From positions 1 to 40,647 of the IMG/VR virus record IMGVR_UViG_3300034682_000094: DNA of 40,647 nt. One strand, given 5' to 3'. Made by a program: the position numbers and the translations under genes. This document shows positions 618-21,772 of the stretch, piece by piece (the first letter of the stretch is position 1; each line of letters opens with the position of its first letter). The notes under the pieces were generated by a model. The model searched no databases. It was not told where the DNA came from and saw only the letters and a program-made list of their open reading frames with translations. This DNA is from a virus.

Positions 618-1484
618 ATGGCCAGCAAACGCAAGCCGGTGCCCGTCAACACGCCAGAAGGGCACAAGGCGGAAATCGCCAAGCTGATGCGCGGCCTGGC
701 CGGCCGCCACGACCTGTGGCGCATCTTCTCGGACTTCGTGGAGATGGCGGCCTGCAGCATTGCCAACGCCTGCGACCGCGGCAATCCGCAGGCCACCCAG
801 CGCGAGGCCCGCTACATGGAAATCGTGAAGGCCTACAGCCGGGACGACCTGGAGGCGTTCCCGCAGATGCTGGCCCACCTGACCATGGCGCTGGAGTGCG
901 GGCCCGGCGACGTGCTGGGCGAGCTGTTCATGGAGCTCGAGTTGGGCAGCAAGTGGCACGGCCAGTTCTTCACGCCGTACTCGGTCTGCCAGCTGATGGC
1001 CCGCCTGACGCTCGGCGACCCCGAGACGCTGCGCGCCAAGGTCGAGCGCCAGGGCTTCGTGACGGCCAACGAGCCGGCCTGCGGTGGTGGTGCCATGCTG
1101 ATCGCCATGGCCGAGGCCATGCAGGAGGCCGGCATCAACTACCAGCAGCGGCTGCACGTCACCGCCCAGGACCTGGACCTGAAGGCCGTGCACATGGCCT
1201 ACGTCCAGCTGTCGCTGCTGCACGTGCCGGCCTACGTGATCCACGGCAACAGCCTGATGGTCGAGCAGCGCAGTGTGTGGTGCACGCCGGCCCACGTCAT
1301 GGGCGGCTGGGCCTGGAAGCTGCGCATGCGCTCCGAATGTTCGGAGCTGCCTTCGGAGGTCGAGGTCGCAACCCCGCCGTCGCTGCCCGCCGAGCACCAG
1401 GCGCCGCCGGAACCCTCGCCTGTGGTGGCCACGCCGGCACCATTGCCGCCGCCATCGACCTGGCAGCAAGTCGGCCTTTTCTGA
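618..1484 (+). CDS. N-6 adenine methylase-like protein lacking the catalytic NPPY motif
   Basis: The 288-residue protein has the SAM-binding half of an HsdM-type DNA methylase. GQFFTPYSV (residues 115-123) matches the 'GQ-[FY]-[FY]-TP' motif before the Rossmann core. NEPACGGGAML (151-161) is motif I, usually DPACGSG. DLDLKAVHMAYVQLSLLHV (185-203) fits motifs II-III, and HGNSL (209-213) fits the end of the following strand. The catalytic [DN]PP[YF] expected soon after is absent; the chain goes on through a Trp-rich stretch into a Pro/Ala-rich tail. Either it is not a methylase, acting perhaps as a SAM-binding or DNA-mimicking factor, or the catalytic part is divergent. It lies in the replication cluster. 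The family assignment is good; enzymatic activity is doubtful. Confidence 0.75.
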   Translation: MASKRKPVPVNTPEGHKAEIAKLMRGLAGRHDLWRIFSDFVEMAACSIANACDRGNPQATQREARYMEIVKAYSRDDLEAFPQMLAHLTMALECGPGDVLGELFMELELGSKWHGQFFTPYSVCQLMARLTLGDPETLRAKVERQGFVTANEPACGGGAMLIAMAEAMQEAGINYQQRLHVTAQDLDLKAVHMAYVQLSLLHVPAYVIHGNSLMVEQRSVWCTPAHVMGGWAWKLRMRSECSELPSEVEVATPPSLPAEHQAPPEPSPVVATPAPLPPPSTWQQVGLF

Positions 1485-14259: not shown

Positions 14260-14418
14260 AGAGGAGATTCCACCTACCTACCTATTTTTTCTTTATTCCA
14301 CCCACGCGCGTATGCAACAAGGTCAACACGCGTTATTTCGAGAAAACGCGAAAAACGTAGAATTTCGCGCAAACGCTTGCCAGCAGACAGCCGCGCCAGG
14401 TCAGGGCACAATCGCGCC

Positions 14419-15036
14419 ATGCTCAGGCTCGCAACCACCAACACCGGCACGCCACTCGCTAAGATTCCGCCCGAGTTGCGCCGTGCGTCACAGCAGGCGC
14501 TTCGTGGCCTGGCGTTCGACGTGCGCGACGCCTTGCGCGAAGGCATGCTCGACGCCTTCGACAGGCCCAAGCCGTTCACGCTCAACGCCTTCCGGATTTC
14601 GGTGGGCAATGGCGAGGCCGTGGTCTGGGCCATGCCCCAGCAGGCCAAGTACCTGTTCTGGGAAATCGAGGGCGGCCAGCGCAAATCCAAGGCCTTCGAG
14701 CACCGCATGCAGCTTTTCGGCGGCAGGGTGGCCATCCCCACGCAGGGAGCCGTCCGCGATCAGTACGGCAACATGCCGCTGTCGTTCATCAAGCGCGTCC
14801 TCGCCGACAAGAACACCAGCGGCAAAGCCGGGCGCTTCTTCGTTGGTGAGCCCAAGGGGCAGCCAGGACAGGAAGGCGTCTGGGCGCGCGTGGACAACAA
14901 CAAGCGCCTGGTCCGCGTCATGGACTTCGCCGAGAAGGCCGAGTACGAGGGCCGCTTCCGCATGTCCGAGATTGCCGACCAAACGATCAATGCTCGCTGG
15001 GAGTACCAGCTGCTGCGCGCCATCAGGAAGGCCTGA
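14419..15036 (+). CDS. Phage protein of unknown function, possibly virion-associated
   Basis: The ATG at 14419 starts a 205-residue basic protein; an earlier in-frame ATG at 14377 lies in the control region. The N-terminal half is helical (PPELRRASQQALRGLAFDVRDALREGMLDAFDRPKPFTLNAF). The middle is beta-rich with aromatic residues (EAVVWAMPQQAKYLFWEIEGGQRKSKAFE), followed by LPLSFIKR-like and GRFFVGEPKG segments. The order 'helical N-terminus, then FxGRxAIP and GxFFVG' is reminiscent of lambda minor tail protein Z or gp10-type neck proteins, but it sits before the packaging genes rather than among tail genes. I therefore leave it unassigned. Confidence 0.6.
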   Translation: MLRLATTNTGTPLAKIPPELRRASQQALRGLAFDVRDALREGMLDAFDRPKPFTLNAFRISVGNGEAVVWAMPQQAKYLFWEIEGGQRKSKAFEHRMQLFGGRVAIPTQGAVRDQYGNMPLSFIKRVLADKNTSGKAGRFFVGEPKGQPGQEGVWARVDNNKRLVRVMDFAEKAEYEGRFRMSEIADQTINARWEYQLLRAIRKA

Positions 15037-15382: not shown

Positions 15383-16129
15383 ATGCACATCGAAGAATGG
15401 CCGCTGGATCGCATCCGGCCTTACCCCAACAACCCCAGGGTTCTACGCAACGCCGCCGAGAAAGTCGCGGAGAGCATCCGCGAATTCGGCTGGCGCCAGC
15501 CCATCGTGGTGGACGATGAAGGCGTGGTCATCATCGGCCACGGCCGCCTCGCCGCCGCCAAGCTGCTGAAGCTGGCCACGGCACCGGTGCACGTCGCCAC
15601 TGGATTGCCTGCCGGCAAGGTGCGGGCCCTGCGCATCGCCGACAACAAGACCGGCGAGTTCAGCGCCTGGGACGACCAGAAGCTGGTGGACGAACTGGCC
15701 GTCATCCTCGACGGCCTGGGCTCGGTGGCCGTGACGGGCTTCACGAAGTCCGAGTTCGCGGCACTGGAGATGCAGGCCCGGGCAGCGCTGGCGGAAATCC
15801 TGCCGAACGCGGCCGGTACCAGCACCGCGCCTGCGCCTGCAGCTACTGAAAACGAAGCGCACGCGATCCCGGCGGCGTCGGCAGTTCTGGCTGATCCTGC
15901 CGACAGCCCCGTGGAGGTGGGCGCCGGCCAGCAAGTGGCATCCCCTGGGCCAGTTGCCCAGGACCCCGCGCCACCGCATGTGCCGGCGCCCGAGCTGGTG
16001 CCGTTCAACGTGCTCATGACGGCCGACGACCGCCAGGCGGTCTACGACGCCGTGAACCGCGCCAAGTCCCAGGCCGGTGCCCGCGACACCGCGGCGGCGC
16101 TGGCCATCATTGCCAGGAGCTACCAGTGA
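15383..16129 (+). CDS. ParB/Srx-fold protein (cassette gene 1)
   Basis: The ATG at 15383 gives 248 residues beginning MHIEEWPLDRIRPYPNNPRVLRNAAEKVAESIREFGWRQPIVVDDEGVVIIGHGRLAAAKLL. This is the ParB N-terminal domain: NP-x-R near residue 17, the 'SI-x-x-F-G-x-x-QPI' helix-strand, and GHGR at 52-55. An in-frame ATG at 15323 would include the operator palindrome and is less likely. After about residue 140 comes a long Pro/Ala linker and a short helical tail (TADDRQAVYDAVNRAKSQAGARDTAAALAIIARSYQ). There is no centromere-binding HTH, so it is not a partition ParB. The family includes nucleases and newly recognised CTPases. GTGA overlap with the cupin gene. Confidence 0.85.
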   Translation: MHIEEWPLDRIRPYPNNPRVLRNAAEKVAESIREFGWRQPIVVDDEGVVIIGHGRLAAAKLLKLATAPVHVATGLPAGKVRALRIADNKTGEFSAWDDQKLVDELAVILDGLGSVAVTGFTKSEFAALEMQARAALAEILPNAAGTSTAPAPAATENEAHAIPAASAVLADPADSPVEVGAGQQVASPGPVAQDPAPPHVPAPELVPFNVLMTADDRQAVYDAVNRAKSQAGARDTAAALAIIARSYQ

Positions 16130-16839
16130 TTGAGACCTTCGAGTGGTCCGGCGACGTCGTGTTCAGCGCGCCGCACGCCACCGTCATCGCCGGCATCGAC
16201 CCGTGCTGGAACCTGCTGGGCACGTTCGCGGAACCCGGCGGCATCATGGGCTTCGTGCTGGACGGCGAGAACGCCGTGCTGCGTCGCGGCAGTGCGTCCT
16301 ACCCGGTGCCGGCCGGCACGTACTTTGCCGTGAACACCGGCGACGTCAGCCTGACCACGCCTGGCGGCCGCATCGTGCTGGTCTACCAGCGCATGGCCGA
16401 CTACCCGTTCCAGATCGGCGGGCCCATCGAGGCCATGGGCCGGCTGCGCTACATCGACGGCTGCACGGACAGCCTGCTGGTGCCGCCGTGGCGCCGCGGC
16501 GAAGCCTGCCTGAACCTGCTGCACATCCCGCCGGGCATCGAGCAGACCATGCACACGCACCCCAGCGACCGCATCGGCGTCGTGGTGTCCGGGCGCGGCC
16601 AGTGCGTGACGCCGGCCGGCACGACCGAGCTGGAGCCAGGCGTGCTCTGGCGCATCCAGGCTGACGGCCTGCACCGGTTCCGGACGCCATACGGCGAGGC
16701 GCTGAAAATCGTCGCGTGGCATCCGGATTCGGATTTCGGGCCGACTGACGACGAGCACCCGATGCTCAACCGATCATTCATCGAAGGCGTCAGCGCCGCC
16801 GATCCAGCGCTGGCCCACATCCGGACGGCACGGCCGTGA
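16126..16839 (+). CDS. Bicupin protein (cassette gene 2)
   Basis: The 237-residue protein starts at GTG 16126, overlapping the ParB stop. Two successive beta-barrel halves are visible. The N-terminal half (about 10-95, with GENAVLRRGSASYPVPAGTYFAVNTGDVSLTT) lacks metal-binding His. The C-terminal half has cupin motif 1 as HTHPSDRIGVVVSGRG (His143, His145), where the usual Glu is replaced, and motif 2 as WRIQADGLHRF (His183). Three His could still hold a metal. Cupins serve as dioxygenases, isomerases or ligand sensors, so the activity is open. Its position between a ParB-like gene and a PP-loop gene, coupled at both ends by GTGA, implies a shared pathway. Confidence 0.75.
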   Translation: MIETFEWSGDVVFSAPHATVIAGIDPCWNLLGTFAEPGGIMGFVLDGENAVLRRGSASYPVPAGTYFAVNTGDVSLTTPGGRIVLVYQRMADYPFQIGGPIEAMGRLRYIDGCTDSLLVPPWRRGEACLNLLHIPPGIEQTMHTHPSDRIGVVVSGRGQCVTPAGTTELEPGVLWRIQADGLHRFRTPYGEALKIVAWHPDSDFGPTDDEHPMLNRSFIEGVSAADPALAHIRTARP

Positions 16840-17609
16840 CCGCCGCGAGAAAGCAGAACCTCGACCATGAGGACTTCGTCGCCATCCGTCGCCAGGCCCG
16901 GTTCACGCCCAGGGCCGTCATCGATGCCAAGGTCGAGCGTGCCGTCGGTGAAATCCGCGAGTTTTGCCGCGGCCGCAATGCAGCCTTCGCCTGGTCTGGT
17001 GGAAAGGATTCCATCGCACTGGCTGCGGTGGCTGCTCTTGCTGGTGTTCCCGACTGCGTTCTGGGCCGCTGTGATCTGGAGTACCCGGCTTTTGTGGCTT
17101 GGCTGACGGCCAACGCGCCCGAGCGCCTGGAGGTCATCAACACCGGCCAGGACCTGGAGTGGCTGGCCGCCAACCCCGGCATGCTGTTCCCGCAGAACGC
17201 CGGCGTCGCCGCGCAGTGGTTCGCCCGCGTGCAGCACACCGCGCAGCGCCGGTACTTCCGCGCCCGGCGCCTCGACGTGCTGCTGGTGGGCAGACGGCGC
17301 AGCGACGGCAACTTCGTCGGCCGCGAAGGCCAGAACTGGTACAGCGCCGACGGCGTGCTGCGCTACTCGCCGCTGGCCGACTGGAGCCACGCCGACGTGT
17401 TCGCCGTGATCGACCGCTTCGGCCTGGCCATGCCGCCGATCTACGACTGGCCGCGTGGCTATCGCTGCGGCACGCACCCCTGGGCGGCCCGGCAGTGGTG
17501 CCGCGGCATCGCCGACGGCTGGCGCGAGGTACACCAGATCGAACCCGGCGTCGTGCGCGAGGCCGCCGACTGGCTGACCTCGGCCCGGCAGTTCCTGGAC
17601 ACCGTGTGA
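16836..17609 (+). CDS. PAPS reductase-like PP-loop enzyme (cassette gene 3)
   Basis: The 257-residue protein starts at GTG 16836 (GTGA overlap). WSGGKDS (53-59) is the PP-loop of ATP-pyrophosphatases that adenylate substrates. VGRRRSDG (151-158) fits the 'G-x-R-x-x-[ED]' motif and YSPLADWSHADVFAVI (177-192) fits the 'PL-x-x-W-x-x-x-DV' motif, both typical of PAPS reductases and their relatives (CysH, DndC, IbrA). CGTH (211-214) resembles the C-terminal CG[IL]H of CysH that carries the catalytic cysteine, though it is internal here. Possible roles are sulfur transfer to nucleic acid or adenylation of another substrate. It is shorter and more divergent than the neighbouring IbrA-like protein. 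Confidence 0.8.
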   Translation: MTAARKQNLDHEDFVAIRRQARFTPRAVIDAKVERAVGEIREFCRGRNAAFAWSGGKDSIALAAVAALAGVPDCVLGRCDLEYPAFVAWLTANAPERLEVINTGQDLEWLAANPGMLFPQNAGVAAQWFARVQHTAQRRYFRARRLDVLLVGRRRSDGNFVGREGQNWYSADGVLRYSPLADWSHADVFAVIDRFGLAMPPIYDWPRGYRCGTHPWAARQWCRGIADGWREVHQIEPGVVREAADWLTSARQFLDTV

Positions 17610-17612
17610 GCC

Positions 17613-18791
17613 ATGGCGAAGATACTGAAGCGCGAGTTCATCGCGGCCAGCGTGTTCGACAAGGCGCTGGAGCGCATCAACACGCTGTTCGACCGGTTCG
17701 ACACCGTCGTGGTGTCGTTCAGCGGCGGCAAGGACAGCACGGTCTGCCTGAACCTGACGCTGATGGTGGCCAGGGAGCGCGGCCGGCTGCCGCTGGACGT
17801 CTACCACTTTGACGAAGAGGCGATCCACCCGGAGACCGTCGAGTACGTGCACCGCGTGGCCGCCAGCCCCGAGGTGCGGTTTCGCTGGTACTGCGTGCCG
17901 GTCCTGCACCGCAACGCCTGCAGCCGCCGCCAGCCGTACTGGCACCCCTGGCACCCCGACGACCGCGCCAAGTGGGTGCGCGAGCCGCCGGCCCAGGCCA
18001 TCTGGACGGTGCCGGGCTTCGCCATGGGCATGACCATGCCGGACTGCGCGCCGCTGGTGTACGGGCCCGAGTTCGGCACGGTGGCCGACGTGCGCGGCAT
18101 CCGCGCCCAGGAAAGCCTGCGCCGGCTGCGCTCGGTGACCATGAAGGCAGACGACAACTGGATCACGGCGCCGCGCAACGGCCACAACTTCGCGTGCTCG
18201 CCGATCTACGACTGGACGACCGAGGATGTCTGGCTGGCGCCCAAGCTGTTCGGCTGTGACTACAACCGCACCTACGACGTCTTCGACAAGGCCGGCGTAA
18301 CCCCGCACGCCCAGCGCGTGTGCCCGCCCTACGGCGAGGAACCGCTGGGCGGCCTGTACCAGTACGCCGAGTGCTGGCCCCACCTCTGGCACAAGATGAT
18401 CGCCCGGGTGCCGGGCGCCGCAACGGCGGCCAGGTACGCGCGCACTGAGCTCTACGGCTTCGGCGGCATCGAGCTTCCGGCAGGCAAGACCTGGCGCAGC
18501 TGGATGGAAGACCTGCTGGCGATGTGGCCGCCCCGGTATGAGCGCGTGATCCGCGCCAACATTGCCGAGCTGATGCGGCTGCACAACCGCAAGACCGGAG
18601 GCCGCGACATCCCAGACGAGGTCTACGACCCCGTGAGCGGCTGCAGCTGGAAATTCCTGTGCGAGACCGCGATGCGCGGCGACCTGAAGGGCAGGCGCTC
18701 GCAGTCCATGCAGCTGAAGGGCGACCAGACCCGAAAGAAGACCGGCCAATCGCTGGCCGAGGCATTGGCCGAGGTGAACCGTGAGCACTGA
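17613..18791 (+). CDS. IbrA-like PAPS reductase-family PP-loop enzyme (cassette gene 4)
   Basis: The 392-residue protein begins three bases after the previous stop. FSGGKDST (36-43) is the PP-loop. VRGIRAQES and SPIYDWTTEDVW are the later PAPS-reductase motifs, and the long insertion with HRNACSRRQPYWHPWHPDD plus a C-terminal helical domain match the IbrA/DUF3440 group, larger than CysH. Several cysteines (VCPPYGEE, AECWPHLW, GCSWKFLCETA) could bind metal. In E. coli prophages IbrA acts with the ParB-like IbrB to switch on eib surface-protein genes by an unknown mechanism. The same two-gene order is found here, with an overlap of 11 bases. Confidence 0.85.
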   Translation: MAKILKREFIAASVFDKALERINTLFDRFDTVVVSFSGGKDSTVCLNLTLMVARERGRLPLDVYHFDEEAIHPETVEYVHRVAASPEVRFRWYCVPVLHRNACSRRQPYWHPWHPDDRAKWVREPPAQAIWTVPGFAMGMTMPDCAPLVYGPEFGTVADVRGIRAQESLRRLRSVTMKADDNWITAPRNGHNFACSPIYDWTTEDVWLAPKLFGCDYNRTYDVFDKAGVTPHAQRVCPPYGEEPLGGLYQYAECWPHLWHKMIARVPGAATAARYARTELYGFGGIELPAGKTWRSWMEDLLAMWPPRYERVIRANIAELMRLHNRKTGGRDIPDEVYDPVSGCSWKFLCETAMRGDLKGRRSQSMQLKGDQTRKKTGQSLAEALAEVNREH

Positions 18792-19293
18792 GACACAGCC
18801 GGTCAGCCGGGTGCGGTGGGAGCCGCGCGGCAGACTGAAAAGCAATAGCTACAACCCCAACGCCGTAGCGCCTCCCGAGCTGGAACTGCTGAAAACGTCC
18901 ATCCTCGAAGACGGCTGGACGCAGCCTATCGTGGTGCTGCCCGACCTGACCATCGTGGACGGCTTTCACCGCTGGACGGTCAGCGCTGACCCCGAGGTGC
19001 GGGCCATGACCGGCGGCCTGGTGCCGGTGGTCGTCATCGACGCCGACCCCGTGCACCGCATGATGTCCACGGTCCGCCACAACCGGGCGCGGGGCACGCA
19101 CGCCGTGCTGCGCATGGCCGACATCGTGCGCTCCATGGTGCAGGCCGGGTTGCCGGCGGCCGAAATCTGCGACCGCCTGGGCATGGAAGACGAAGAACTG
19201 GAGCGCCTGCTGGATCGTGCCGGCATGACGGTCAGGGGTGTCGGTAACGCGGTAAACTTCGGCAACGCCTGGGTTCCCAGCCGAAATACCTGA
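18781..19293 (+). CDS. IbrB-like ParB-domain protein (cassette gene 5)
   Basis: The start is GTG 18781, inside the end of the IbrA-like gene. The 170 residues contain a ParB-type core (LKSNSYNPNAVAPPELELLKTSILEDGWTQPIVVLPDLTIVDGFHRWTV), with DGFHRW (60-65) in place of GHGR, then MSTVRHNRARGTHAVLRMADIVRSMVQAGLPAAEICDRLGMEDEELERLL, which includes a helix-turn-helix-like segment. This matches the IbrB pattern. Two distinct ParB-fold proteins in one operon is unusual. It ends 9 bases before the terminase small subunit, so the cassette is transcribed directly into packaging. Confidence 0.85.
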   Translation: MSTETQPVSRVRWEPRGRLKSNSYNPNAVAPPELELLKTSILEDGWTQPIVVLPDLTIVDGFHRWTVSADPEVRAMTGGLVPVVVIDADPVHRMMSTVRHNRARGTHAVLRMADIVRSMVQAGLPAAEICDRLGMEDEELERLLDRAGMTVRGVGNAVNFGNAWVPSRNT

Positions 19294-19302
19294 CCCGCAT
19301 GT

Positions 19303-19923
19303 ATGGAAATCATCACGCTCCGTGAATTTGCGCGCCGCATCGGCGTCAGCCTGACTGCCGTCCAGAACGGCGCCAAGTCGGGCCGCATCGACGTGTTCCG
19401 CGATGACGCCGGCAAGATCACCGGCATCGACTGGAGCACGCAGGAGGCGGCGTGGTCGGAGAACAGCAAGGCGCCGCAGCGTCGCCCGCACAACCCCGGC
19501 GGCGGCCGTCCCCGCAATGACGGCCTGCCACCGGCGGCACCGGCCACCCGCAGGCCGCAGGAAGGCGAGGTCACCGAACACCTAGAGGCCCAGCCCCATG
19601 GCGGCGCCCTGAAGCGTGCCGCCACCGAACCGCCGCCCAAGGGCGAGATGACGCTGGCGCAGATTCAGCGCGCCCGCGAGCTGGTGAAGCTGCAGATCGA
19701 CAACGAGGCCCTGAAGAAGGCCAAGGGCGAAAGCGTGTCGCGCGCCGAGGTCTACTCGGAAGGCGCGAAGCTGGCGGGCACCATCATCAGCGCGCTGTAC
19801 AACATCCCGGAACGCATCAGCGACGACCTGGCGGGCATGACCGACCCGCACAAGATCGCCGAGCTGCTGACCCGCGAAATCAACGACGCCGTGGCGTCCA
19901 TCCGCCAGAAGTATGGAAACTGA
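19303..19923 (+). CDS. Terminase small subunit, Nu1-like
   Basis: This 206-residue protein opens with a winged-HTH MEIITLREFARRIGVSLTAVQNGAKSGRI (1-29), the DNA-recognition domain of lambda Nu1-type small terminases, which bind cos or pac DNA. A Pro/Gly-rich linker (KAPQRRPHNPGGGRPRNDGLPPAAPATRRPQEG) joins it to a helical C-terminal domain (MTLAQIQRARELVKLQIDNEALKKAKGESVSRAEVYSEGAKLAGTI). The last part, LYNIPERISDDLAGMTDPHKI, is typical for oligomerisation and large-subunit contact. It overlaps the large subunit gene by 11 bases. Confidence 0.85.
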   Translation: MEIITLREFARRIGVSLTAVQNGAKSGRIDVFRDDAGKITGIDWSTQEAAWSENSKAPQRRPHNPGGGRPRNDGLPPAAPATRRPQEGEVTEHLEAQPHGGALKRAATEPPPKGEMTLAQIQRARELVKLQIDNEALKKAKGESVSRAEVYSEGAKLAGTIISALYNIPERISDDLAGMTDPHKIAELLTREINDAVASIRQKYGN

Positions 19924-21772
19924 GAACGCCCTGATCGCGGGCTTTTTCAGCGCGTTCCGCCCGCCGAGCCGCCGCACCGTGACCGAGTGGGCCGACGGCG
20001 AGCGCTGGCTGCCGGCCAAGGGCAGCGCCGCGCCCGGCAAGTACCGCAGCGACCGCACGCCGTACATGCGCGAGCCCATGGATTGCCTGTCCGTGCTGTC
20101 GCCCGTCGAGGAAGTCGTGCTGATGGCCGGCGCCCAGCTCGGCAAGTCGGAGAGCGGCAACAACTGGGTGGGCTACGTCATCGACGAGGCCCCGGGCCCG
20201 ATGCTGCTGGTGCAGCCCACCGTGGACAACGCCAAGCGCTACAGCAAGCAGCGCATCAGCCCGATGATCCTGGAGACCCCGGCGCTGCGGGCCAAGGTGG
20301 TGGACAACACCAGCCGCGCCGGCGGCAACACCATGCTGGAGAAGGAATTCCCGAACGGCATGCTGATCCTGGGCGGGGCTAACAGCGCGGCCGGCCTGCG
20401 CTCGATGCCCATCCGCTACGGCTTCTTCGATGAAATCTCGAACTGGCCGGCCGACGTGGACGGCGAAGGCGACCCACTGGGCCTGGCCGAGGAACGCACC
20501 AACACCTTCGGGCGCAAGCGCAAGCTGTTCAAGACCAGCACGCCCGGCATCAAGGGCGTGTGCCGGATCGAAACCGAGTTCCTGAAGACCGACCAGCGGC
20601 GCTACTTCGTGCCGTGCCCGCACTGCGGCCACATGCACGTCCTGCGCTGGGAGAACTTCGTAATCCCCAAGGACGACAACGGCAGGAACCGGCCGTCCGA
20701 GGCGTACATGAAGTGTCCGGAGTGCTTCGACACGACCGGCGCCATGATCCTGGAGCACCACAAGACCGAGATGCTGGCGCGCGGCGAGTGGCGGGCCACG
20801 TGCCCCGAGAACGCCGACCCGTCGCGCCGCGGTTACCACATCAACGGCCTCTACTCGCCCGTGGGCTGGAAGTCGTGGGCGAAGGTGGCCAAGCAGTGGC
20901 TGGAAGCCCAGGGCAACCCGAAGAAGCTGCAGGCCTTCACCAACAACGTGTTGGCCGAGACCTACAAGGTGGCCGGCGACAGCATCAGCGACGTCGCGCT
21001 CTACAACCGCGTGCAGCAGGGCGATTACGACTACGAGCCTGCCGTGCTGCTGCCAGACGGCGCGCTGCTGATCACCATCGGCGTGGACGTGCAGCCCAAC
21101 CGCCTAGAGCTGGAGGTCATCGGCTGGGGGCTGGGCCAGGAGAGCTGGAGCCTGGACTACAAGGTCATCCTCGGCGACCCCAACACGGCGCTGGTCTGGC
21201 AGCAGCTCGATGCCTTCCTGGCCACGGAATGGCTGCACCCGAGCGGCGTCAGGCTGCGCGCAGCGCGCACGTTCATCGACACCCGCGGCGAGAACACCAA
21301 GGCGGTCTACGAGTACGTGGCGGCGCGCGGCGGCTACGGCGTGTTCGGCATCATGGGCCTGGGCGGCGACGGCCTGCCGGCTGTCGGCACGCCGCGCAAG
21401 ACCAGCCTGTCCAAGGTGCCCATCGTGCCGCTGGGCACGTTCACGCTGAAGGACAGCGTCTATGGCGCGCTGGCGCTGGAAGAACCAGGCCCGGGCTACT
21501 GCCATTTCCCAAAGCGCTACAAGGACAGCTACTACCGCGGCCTGACCGCCGAGGAAGTGCGGCCAAAAGTCAACGCCAAGGGCTTCACGGAACGCGAGTG
21601 GTTCAAGAAGCAGGCCGACGCCCGCAACGAGCCCCTGGACTGCCGGGTCTATGGCACCGCGGCCATGTTGTCGCTGAACGTCAATTTCGAGCACCTGGCC
21701 GAAGTCATCCACGCAACGGAGCAGCAGACAGAGCAGCGCAAGGTCCGCGGAGCGCTTGAGCCCACGGCGTAA
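19913..21772 (+). CDS. terL: Terminase large subunit, lambda gpA family
   Basis: The 619-residue packaging motor and nuclease is of the gpA type. AGAQLGKSE (72-80) is the ATP-binding P-loop and YGFFDE (169-174) the Walker B. A zinc-binding insertion follows (CPHCGHMHVLRW and CPECFDTTG). The C-terminal half has the RNase H-like nuclease: ITIGVDVQPNRLELEVIGWG gives the first catalytic Asp, and FIDTRGENTKAVYEYV a later acidic site. The ATG at 19913 lies within the end of the small subunit gene. Length and order are as in lambda-like head modules. gpA family members usually cut at cos sites, but no cos site is identified here. Confidence 0.95.
   Translation: METENALIAGFFSAFRPPSRRTVTEWADGERWLPAKGSAAPGKYRSDRTPYMREPMDCLSVLSPVEEVVLMAGAQLGKSESGNNWVGYVIDEAPGPMLLVQPTVDNAKRYSKQRISPMILETPALRAKVVDNTSRAGGNTMLEKEFPNGMLILGGANSAAGLRSMPIRYGFFDEISNWPADVDGEGDPLGLAEERTNTFGRKRKLFKTSTPGIKGVCRIETEFLKTDQRRYFVPCPHCGHMHVLRWENFVIPKDDNGRNRPSEAYMKCPECFDTTGAMILEHHKTEMLARGEWRATCPENADPSRRGYHINGLYSPVGWKSWAKVAKQWLEAQGNPKKLQAFTNNVLAETYKVAGDSISDVALYNRVQQGDYDYEPAVLLPDGALLITIGVDVQPNRLELEVIGWGLGQESWSLDYKVILGDPNTALVWQQLDAFLATEWLHPSGVRLRAARTFIDTRGENTKAVYEYVAARGGYGVFGIMGLGGDGLPAVGTPRKTSLSKVPIVPLGTFTLKDSVYGALALEEPGPGYCHFPKRYKDSYYRGLTAEEVRPKVNAKGFTEREWFKKQADARNEPLDCRVYGTAAMLSLNVNFEHLAEVIHATEQQTEQRKVRGALEPTA

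What the first reader, a model, noticed from the sequence alone, without database searches (positions are those of the whole stretch)
15383..19293. Five-gene ParB - bicupin - PP-loop - IbrA-like - IbrB-like cassette in front of phage packaging genes
Seen: two ParB/Srx-fold proteins (GHGR and DGFHRW variants), a bicupin with three His but no cupin Glu, and two SGGKDS PAPS-reductase-family enzymes are translated as one coupled unit: GTGA overlap, GTGA overlap, 3-base gap, 11-base overlap. The unit runs straight into terminase. Known: IbrA/IbrB are an E. coli prophage pair with poorly understood regulation of eib genes, and PP-loop relatives such as DndC sulfur-modify DNA. Inference: the additional ParB, cupin and second PP-loop enzyme could make this an extended pathway, perhaps chemical modification of phage DNA before packaging. 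IbrAB-like control of host surface genes is the alternative.
Basis: partly seen in the sequence, partly recalled or inferred. Interest (0 to 1): 0.88.

Follow-up and report, generated by a model that had tools for sequence, protein, structure and literature searches.

The report
Modular phage pathway upstream of terminase
Many uncultured phages carry, just before their DNA-packaging genes, the same three-gene core (two ParB-like proteins and an ATP-splitting enzyme) fed by exchangeable genes that make or import some small molecule, which looks like an undescribed way of chemically decorating phage DNA, although no modified DNA has yet been measured.

Summary
The "one system" reading passes its own test. 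In viral contigs with enough flank, the cupin family sits with ParB-IbrA-IbrB in 37 of 37 cases, and the extra PP-loop enzyme (PP1) sits with IbrA-IbrB in 72 of 72. Of 175 distinct IbrB loci, 154 have a large terminase within 3 kb downstream, from five terminase families.

The cassette is modular. A ParB-IbrA-IbrB core is joined by a supply gene placed directly before PP1. That gene is either a phage-encoded solute importer (SSF symporter, a second transporter, or once an ABC importer) or a cupin. Cupin types often add a class II glutamine amidotransferase (10 of 15, against 0 of 66 importer types). The same trio, cupin + PP-loop + amidotransferase, recurs in bacterial chromosomes without ParB/IbrAB. 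In a terminase relative the same slot holds a ParB-methyltransferase fusion plus AdoMet decarboxylase.

Best reading: phage DNA is modified before packaging with a small-molecule (probably amine or amide) donor. Sulfur chemistry of the DndC kind is not supported for PP1. No modified nucleoside was shown; chemistry and target remain inferred.

The parts
15383..16129 (+). ParB1: ParB/Srx-fold protein (GHGR variant) with a low-complexity linker and a short C-terminal domain; core gene
   Evidence: 35% identical over 129 aa to the ParB part of the ZRG1 ParB-methyltransferase
16126..16839 (+). Two-barrel cupin with an all-His metal site (H143, H145, H183); supply-type gene
   Evidence: family seen in 408 viral and 203 bacterial genome matches
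16836..17609 (+). PP1: PP-loop ATP-pyrophosphatase of PAPS-reductase fold (SGGKDS; GRRRSDGN)
17613..18791 (+). IbrA-like PP-loop protein (SGGKDS, GxRxxES) with DUF3440; core gene
18781..19293 (+). IbrB-like ParB/Srx-fold protein (DGFHRW); core gene
19303..19923 (+). Terminase small subunit (constant downstream neighbour)
   Evidence: phrog_57 3e-20
19913..21772 (+). Terminase large subunit, GpA type (constant downstream neighbour)
   Evidence: GpA_ATPase 6e-90
14377..15036 (+). Minor tail protein at the upstream edge of the slot; also annotated at that edge in ZRG1 and CRP-406

Best explanation
The cassette is a modular phage pathway that most likely installs a small-molecule-derived modification on phage DNA shortly before packaging. 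Shown by comparison: (1) a core of ParB1, IbrA (PP-loop) and IbrB (second ParB fold); (2) an exchangeable supply step directly before PP1, either a membrane solute importer or a cupin enzyme; (3) PP1, often followed in cupin types by a class II glutamine amidotransferase; (4) terminase next in line. Inferred: the cupin makes or trims a small amino-acid-like or ureide-like compound, or the importer brings one in. PP1 activates it by adenylation, with ammonia from the amidotransferase where present. IbrA, with IbrB as its ATP- or CTP-using, DNA-engaging partner and ParB1 as a DNA or terminase adaptor, then transfers it to DNA. In the window phage the donor is made by the cupin and activated by PP1, and no amidotransferase was found. 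Step confidence: one functional system 0.95; modular donor-supply logic 0.8; DNA as the target 0.6; amine or amide rather than sulfur chemistry at PP1 0.55.
For: Co-occurrence: cupin-seeded viral loci 37/37 with ParB1, IbrA and IbrB; PP1-seeded 72/72 with IbrA and IbrB, 70/72 with ParB1; IbrB-seeded 38/42 with ParB1, 28/42 with cupin, 6/42 with PP1. Terminase linkage: 154/175 distinct loci, median 858 bases, five TerL groups, confirmed as terminases. Same slot, other content: ZRG1, with the nearest annotated TerL (53%), has a ParB+N6_N4_Mtase fusion and AdoMet_dc between a minor tail gene and TerS/TerL. Supply logic: of 80 distinct PP1 loci with upstream sequence, 62 have a polytopic transporter directly upstream (58 of one SSF-type cluster, the others unassigned), usually within 15 bases or overlapping, and 6 have this cupin. 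L169 has an ABC permease and an SsuA/NMT1-type binding protein there; L031, L032, L188 and L328 have other cupin-like proteins there. Amidotransferase: 10/15 cupin types, 0/66 importer types. Cellular parallel: the cupin without IbrAB lies near an AsnB-like GATase+PP-loop protein in 19 loci and near a PP-loop-motif protein in 7. PP1 swap: 33% identity to L046 while neighbours are 71-86% except TerS at 61%. Precedent: in Dpd systems a ParB-like ATPase (DpdB) partners a base-inserting enzyme (PMC12839542).
Against: No modified nucleoside was measured in any carrier. IbrAB cores also occur away from terminase: 21 of 175 loci here, and the isolate phages of Microcystis, Streptococcus, Gaiavirus and PhiR5_2. 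ParB1's motif is not conserved (mostly GNGL in importer types), so it may not bind NTP. Solute import or cupin chemistry would also fit a host-metabolism role. Loci are the best-scoring matches of pattern scans, so frequencies are not population estimates and related phages count more than once.
Confidence: 0.57

Rival explanations
1. Auxiliary metabolism: the cassette makes or salvages a small molecule for the infected host or for virion production, with ParB-fold proteins acting as small-molecule kinases or NTPases. DNA is not touched.
For: Importers, cupin, amidotransferase and PP-loop enzymes are all small-molecule proteins. Cellular copies of the cupin lie near biosynthetic genes: AsnB-like, aminotransferase-like and NRPS-like. 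PHROGs files the PP-loop genes as auxiliary metabolic.
Against: Does not explain 154/175 linkage to terminases of five groups, two ParB-fold proteins in nearly every cassette, or a ParB-methyltransferase fusion in the same slot of a relative.
Confidence: 0.2
2. IbrAB-like transcriptional control of host or phage genes, as reported for the E. coli prophage pair and eib genes; the extra genes are hitch-hikers.
For: IbrA and IbrB families are present. In PhiR5_2 an IbrAB pair sits by antirepressors. In other phages they are annotated as co-activators.
Against: Cupin and PP1 families were not found in viral contigs without the core wherever flanks sufficed, so they are not hitch-hikers. Catalytic PP-loop and ParB residues are conserved in over 200 sequences, and a solute importer has no role in this model.
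Confidence: 0.08
3. Sulfur modification of DNA (phosphorothioate or thiobase) by DndC-like chemistry, with the two PP-loop enzymes as sulfurtransferases.
For: Both PP-loop proteins are closest by profile to PAPS reductase/CysD-type enzymes. IbrA has a weak local match to DndC models and one cysteine, C94, in 96% of 206 sequences. The ABC importer of L169 is of the sulfonate family.
Against: PP1 has no universal cysteine and IbrA lacks a conserved three-cysteine set. No desulfurase or other Dnd gene was seen in the cassettes. PP1 associates with glutamine amidotransferases.
Confidence: 0.1
4. Modification of a protein of the packaging or virion machinery (terminase, portal, capsid) rather than DNA.
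For: Constant position before terminase. AsnB-like and amidoligase-type chemistry often acts on peptides (established knowledge); an amidoligase and GGACT lie next to some cassettes.
Against: Terminases next to the cassette belong to five groups, so no single protein substrate is obvious. ParB-fold partners and the methyltransferase slot-mate point to DNA.
Confidence: 0.05

Closest known systems
IbrA/IbrB pair (E. coli prophage co-activators of eib genes) and phage 'PAPS reductase + ParB' pairs (phrog_2302, phrog_2159)
   Same: IbrA and IbrB proteins here belong to these families; adjacency is conserved.
   Different: Here they are the end of a longer coupled unit with ParB1, a supply gene and often PP1, and mostly lie just before terminase.
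Dpd 7-deazaguanine DNA modification (DpdA base inserter + DpdB ParB-like ATPase)
   Same: Works like it in outline: a DNA-modifying enzyme paired with a ParB-like ATPase (PMC12839542).
   Different: No TGT-type DpdA seen; PP-loop enzymes and cupin/importer instead. Resemblance in logic only.
DndABCDE phosphorothioation (DndC PP-loop, DndB ParB superfamily)
   Same: PP-loop plus ParB-superfamily pairing (PMC10853773).
   Different: Whole-length match to DndC absent, cysteine set absent, no DndA/D/E in the cassettes; importers and amidotransferases present.
Phage ParB-DNA methyltransferase fusions before terminase (phrog_498 type; ZRG1)
   Same: Same ParB domain (35% identity) and same genomic slot.
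   Different: Methyltransferase and AdoMet decarboxylase instead of cupin, PP1 and IbrAB.
Asparagine-synthetase-type enzymes (class II GATase + PP-loop ATPase)
   Same: Same two activities, here as separate neighbouring genes in many cupin-type cassettes; the cellular cupin sits beside AsnB-like proteins.
   Different: PP1 is of PAPS-reductase type by sequence and fold, not of the Asn_synthase family.

Membership tests
IbrA/IbrB family | IbrA: PAPS-reductase domain plus DUF3440 | tested here: met
   DUF3440 2.6e-14, PAPS_reduct 7e-12; phrog_2302 1.7e-84
IbrA/IbrB family | IbrB: ParB-like protein with DGxHR, encoded next to IbrA | tested here: met
   phrog_2159 1.3e-63; D60, G61, H63, R64 in at least 93% of 219; 11-base overlap
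IbrA/IbrB family | Activates expression of eib surface-protein genes | not testable with these tools
   Needs expression experiments; eib genes were not searched for here
Dnd phosphorothioation system | DndC: full-length DndC-type PP-loop protein with Fe-S cysteines | tested here: not met
   Only a local sub-threshold match (20.5 bits vs cut-off 290.4); single conserved cysteine in IbrA, none universal in PP1
Dnd phosphorothioation system | DndA, DndD and DndE partners | tested here: inconclusive
   None in the cassette or among recurrent neighbours; the five cassette proteins and 13 other window ORFs were scanned with Pfam, not every gene
Dpd system | DpdA (TGT-like) with DpdB | tested here: inconclusive
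   No TGT-like gene among the scanned window ORFs or recurrent neighbours; not every gene was scanned
Cupin superfamily, bicupin | Two beta-barrel domains with a HxH...H metal site | tested here: met
   (Z 19.6, rmsd 3.0, 197 aligned to DUF861 protein 1sfn; Z 18.8, rmsd 2.8, 197 aligned to ureidoglycine aminohydrolase 4e2q)
Thiol dioxygenases (cysteine dioxygenase type, three-His cupins) | Sequence or fold match to cysteine dioxygenase | tested here: inconclusive
   Not among the profile hits or listed fold matches; three-His site present, but it also occurs in other cupins
PP-loop ATP-pyrophosphatase superfamily | SGGxDS loop and N-type PPase fold | tested here: met
   (97 of 98 PP1 with S[GA]GKD[SG]); model pLDDT 94.5; PAPS reductase 2o8v Z 14.1, rmsd 3.2, 185 aligned; FAD synthase Z 13.9; GMP synthase Z 13.4
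Phage DNA modification systems | Chemically altered nucleoside or backbone in virion DNA | not testable with these tools
   No virion DNA chemistry available; no published measurement for a carrier phage was found in the library searched

The most novel reading that the evidence does not exclude
A large, mostly uncultured set of phages encodes its own solute importer, or a cupin-based biosynthetic step, to obtain a small molecule that a PP-loop/ParB machine attaches to phage DNA just before packaging. This would be a donor-import route to DNA hypermodification with exchangeable donor modules and, in cupin types, glutamine-derived nitrogen.
Probability: 0.4. Interest if true: 0.93.

Novelty: new variant of a known kind. 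Interest (0 to 1): 0.82.

Why it matters
IbrA/IbrB-like 'PAPS reductase + ParB' pairs are annotated in many phages as sulfur-metabolism genes or co-activators, with no agreed function. Showing that they are the core of a modular, terminase-linked pathway with importers, cupins and glutamine amidotransferases turns an annotation puzzle into a testable one. If DNA is the target, it adds a class of phage DNA modification whose donor can be imported by a phage-encoded transporter, with consequences for restriction escape, for phage engineering and for enzyme discovery. It also warns against listing these genes as sulfur auxiliary metabolic genes.

Tried and rejected
Cultured phages: tblastn of the window cupin, and of a second cupin (L070), against 50,697 phage records gave nothing; PP1 gave only an unannotated faecal clone, MT836198; plasmids gave nothing for PP1. 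ParB1 as a single query found no viral relatives because the search uses short exact patterns. Serratia phage eta, once said to have hypermodified guanine, was checked as a possible carrier: the paper reports no modified base and the search of its text found no PAPS reductase. Restriction data for Flavobacterium phage FCL-2, which has IbrAB, were not found in its paper. Promoter and terminator scans and Rfam gave nothing above chance in the region. Thiol dioxygenase as the cupin's function was considered because of the three-His site and a note on a mycobacterial prophage (PMC8092301); it is left open because the fold matches favour DUF861/ureidoglycine aminohydrolase, BacB and AerE. The LAGLIDADG-like, PD-(D/E)XK-like and Pro/Gly-rich ORFs inside single cassettes (L071, L117, L047) were treated as insertions. 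Fusions between cassette genes were looked for and none was found.
Full report
OBSERVATION. The five ORFs, their starts and their overlaps are as stated. Families: ParB1 matches phage ParB families (phrog_620 4.8e-40) and also the ParB end of a ParB-DNA-methyltransferase family (phrog_498 2.7e-38). The cupin matches Cupin_2. PP1 matches PAPS_reduct and phrog_424. The IbrA-like protein matches PAPS_reduct, DUF3440 and phrog_2302. The IbrB-like protein matches phrog_2159. TerS and a GpA-type TerL follow at once. The window is an IMG/VR virus record of 40,647 bases.

IS IT ONE SYSTEM? The first relative found (L001) already had ParB-cupin-IbrA-IbrB-TerS-TerL without PP1. PP1 as a query gave 42 viral loci and as an alignment 144, of which 80 were kept. 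The cupin alignment gave 408 viral matches (80 kept) and 203 matches in bacterial and archaeal genomes (80 kept). IbrB gave over 560 matches (80 kept). Profiles built in the Python box were used to read gene order. Restricting to loci with at least 2.8 kb on both sides: cupin-seeded viral loci have ParB1, IbrA and IbrB in 37/37; PP1-seeded have IbrA and IbrB in 72/72 and ParB1 in 70/72; IbrB-seeded have IbrA 42/42, ParB1 38/42, cupin 28/42, PP1 6/42. So the core occurs with or without the accessories, but the phage accessories were not seen without the core. These are the best-scoring matches, not a random sample.

LINK TO PACKAGING. Among 175 distinct IbrB loci with 3 kb or more downstream, 154 have a large terminase starting within 3 kb on the same strand, median 858 bases. 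The terminases fall in five groups, and representatives of the four not seeded by the window were confirmed as terminases in PHROGs. The rate is 66/67 for PP1 types, 63/73 for cupin types, 9/10 with both, and 16/25 for core only. Exceptions exist, also in isolates: Microcystis phage Mwe-JY13, Streptococcus phage CHPC877, Mycobacterium phage Nebkiss and Escherichia phage PhiR5_2. Mycobacterium phage Phlyer shows the core directly before TerL.

WHAT ELSE SITS IN THE SLOT. In terminase relatives of the window the slot varies: ParB-cupin-IbrA-IbrB (L356, L357, L359, L360), the full five (L046), a lone ParB at a distance (RcMeacham), nothing (CRP-406), and in Pseudomonas phage ZRG1 a ParB-N6_N4_Mtase fusion followed by AdoMet decarboxylase. 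The ZRG1 ParB part is 35% identical to ParB1 over 129 residues. A slot whose contents swap between a DNA methyltransferase module and this cassette is the best sequence evidence that the cassette acts on DNA.

THE SUPPLY GENE. Directly upstream of PP1, 62 of 80 distinct loci with 1.5 kb or more of upstream sequence have a polytopic membrane protein; 58 of these form one cluster, whose tested members are SSF sodium:solute symporters, and 4 belong to an unassigned family. Spacing is mostly from a 4-base overlap to 15 bases. Six have the window-type cupin there. Of the other twelve, L034 has an SSF gene one further up, L014 and L023 have what look like SSF fragments, L169 has an ABC permease and an SsuA/NMT1-type binding protein, L188 and L328 have other Cupin_2 proteins, and L031 and L032 have a cupin-like protein by eye only (Pfam found none for L031). 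The nearest solved SSF relatives are DUR3 urea symporters and a choline transporter, which does not fix the solute.

GLUTAMINE AMIDOTRANSFERASE. A class II GATase (MCG start, GATase_6/7) lies right after PP1 in 10 of 15 cupin-type PP1 cassettes and in 0 of 66 importer types (Fisher p 1.6e-9, not corrected for kinship). The window, L046, L047, L113 and L316 lack it. In bacterial chromosomes the same cupin family occurs mostly without ParB/IbrAB and lies near an AsnB-like protein (Asn_synthase plus GATase_7 in the tested member) in 19 of the loci and near a PP-loop-motif protein in 7 more. The trio of cupin, PP-loop ATPase and class II amidotransferase therefore recurs in two contexts. A cupin tree needs at least two (most parsimoniously eight) changes between phage and cell labels, so the family has moved between the two more than once.

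CHEMISTRY. PP1 keeps the PP-loop and a GRRxxDGN motif but no universal cysteine (highest column 86%, and alanine in the window). IbrA keeps SGGKDS and GxRxxES in nearly all of 208 sequences and one cysteine, C94, in 96%. IbrB keeps DGxHR. ParB1 does not keep its motif across types (mostly GNGL in importer types). The cupin keeps H143, H145, H183, H199, H211, C113, C128 and C160 in at least 93%. The PP1 model is closest to PAPS reductases, the FAD-synthase PAPS domain, CysD and GMP-synthase ATPPase, all tied within a Z unit or so. The cupin model is closest to DUF861 proteins including ureidoglycine aminohydrolase, then BacB and AerE. A shared fold does not fix a reaction. Between the window and L046 the cassette neighbours are 71-86% identical but PP1 only 33%, as expected if PP1 is an exchangeable specificity module.

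INTERPRETATION. Shown: one modular, terminase-linked system. Inferred: a donor is imported or made, activated by PP1 (with ammonia from glutamine in some types) and transferred by IbrA with IbrB and ParB1, most likely to DNA. Precedent for a ParB-like ATPase beside a DNA-modifying enzyme is DpdB (PMC12839542). For sulfur, the precedent is DndC/DndB (PMC10853773), which PP1 does not resemble in cysteines or partners. The main gap is chemical: nobody in the literature reached here has measured the DNA of a carrier.

NOVELTY. IbrAB-like pairs are known and annotated, usually as PAPS reductases or co-activators (PMC10434257, PMC4490671, PMC8813620, PMC4541368). A cupin-like (cysteine dioxygenase motif) and a PAPS-reductase-like gene were noted together once in mycobacterial prophages as unusual (PMC8092301). 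No paper in the library searched describes the combined pathway or the importer association, but most subscription papers are not held there. Carriers of the cupin and PP1 are nearly absent from cultured-phage records, which may be why it was missed.

Noticed in passing
L151:4527-5999 and about 60 other PP1 loci: Phage-encoded SSF sodium:solute symporter directly upstream of PP1; its PHROG (20720) is labelled unknown function.
   Followed up: yes
L169:4280-5987: ABC importer permease and SsuA/NMT1-type binding protein in the place of the SSF symporter before PP1.
   Followed up: partly
L250:6980-10390, L240:6655-7581 and 17 or so similar bacterial loci: Bacterial three-gene neighbourhood: the same cupin, an AsnB-like protein and a zinc-ribbon membrane protein without Pfam match, in Planctomycetota, Verrucomicrobiota, Bacteroidota and others.
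   Followed up: partly
L341:6553-8083, L337, L342, L351: Gamma-glutamylcyclotransferase-like (GGACT) and Amidoligase_2 genes close together just downstream of IbrB, mostly on the opposite strand.
   Followed up: partly
L038:1561-2280: PIG-L deacetylase-like gene between PP1 and IbrA.
   Followed up: no
L129:7999-8595 (Pseudomonas phage ZRG1): Gene annotated as Nmad5 family putative nucleotide modification protein, close to the ParB-methyltransferase/AdoMet decarboxylase module.
   Followed up: no
window 618-1484: N6_Mtase-like gene (1.7e-07) elsewhere in the window phage, so ordinary methylation may coexist with the cassette.
   Followed up: no
L071:2357-2902 and L047:7168-8061: A LAGLIDADG-like ORF and a Pro/Gly-rich repeat ORF lie between IbrA and IbrB, splitting the pair.
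   Followed up: no
L199-L211 (Maricaulaceae): The cupin is present in a dozen Maricaulaceae genomes next to sialic-acid-synthase-like and cytidylyltransferase-like genes on the other strand, without AsnB.
   Followed up: no
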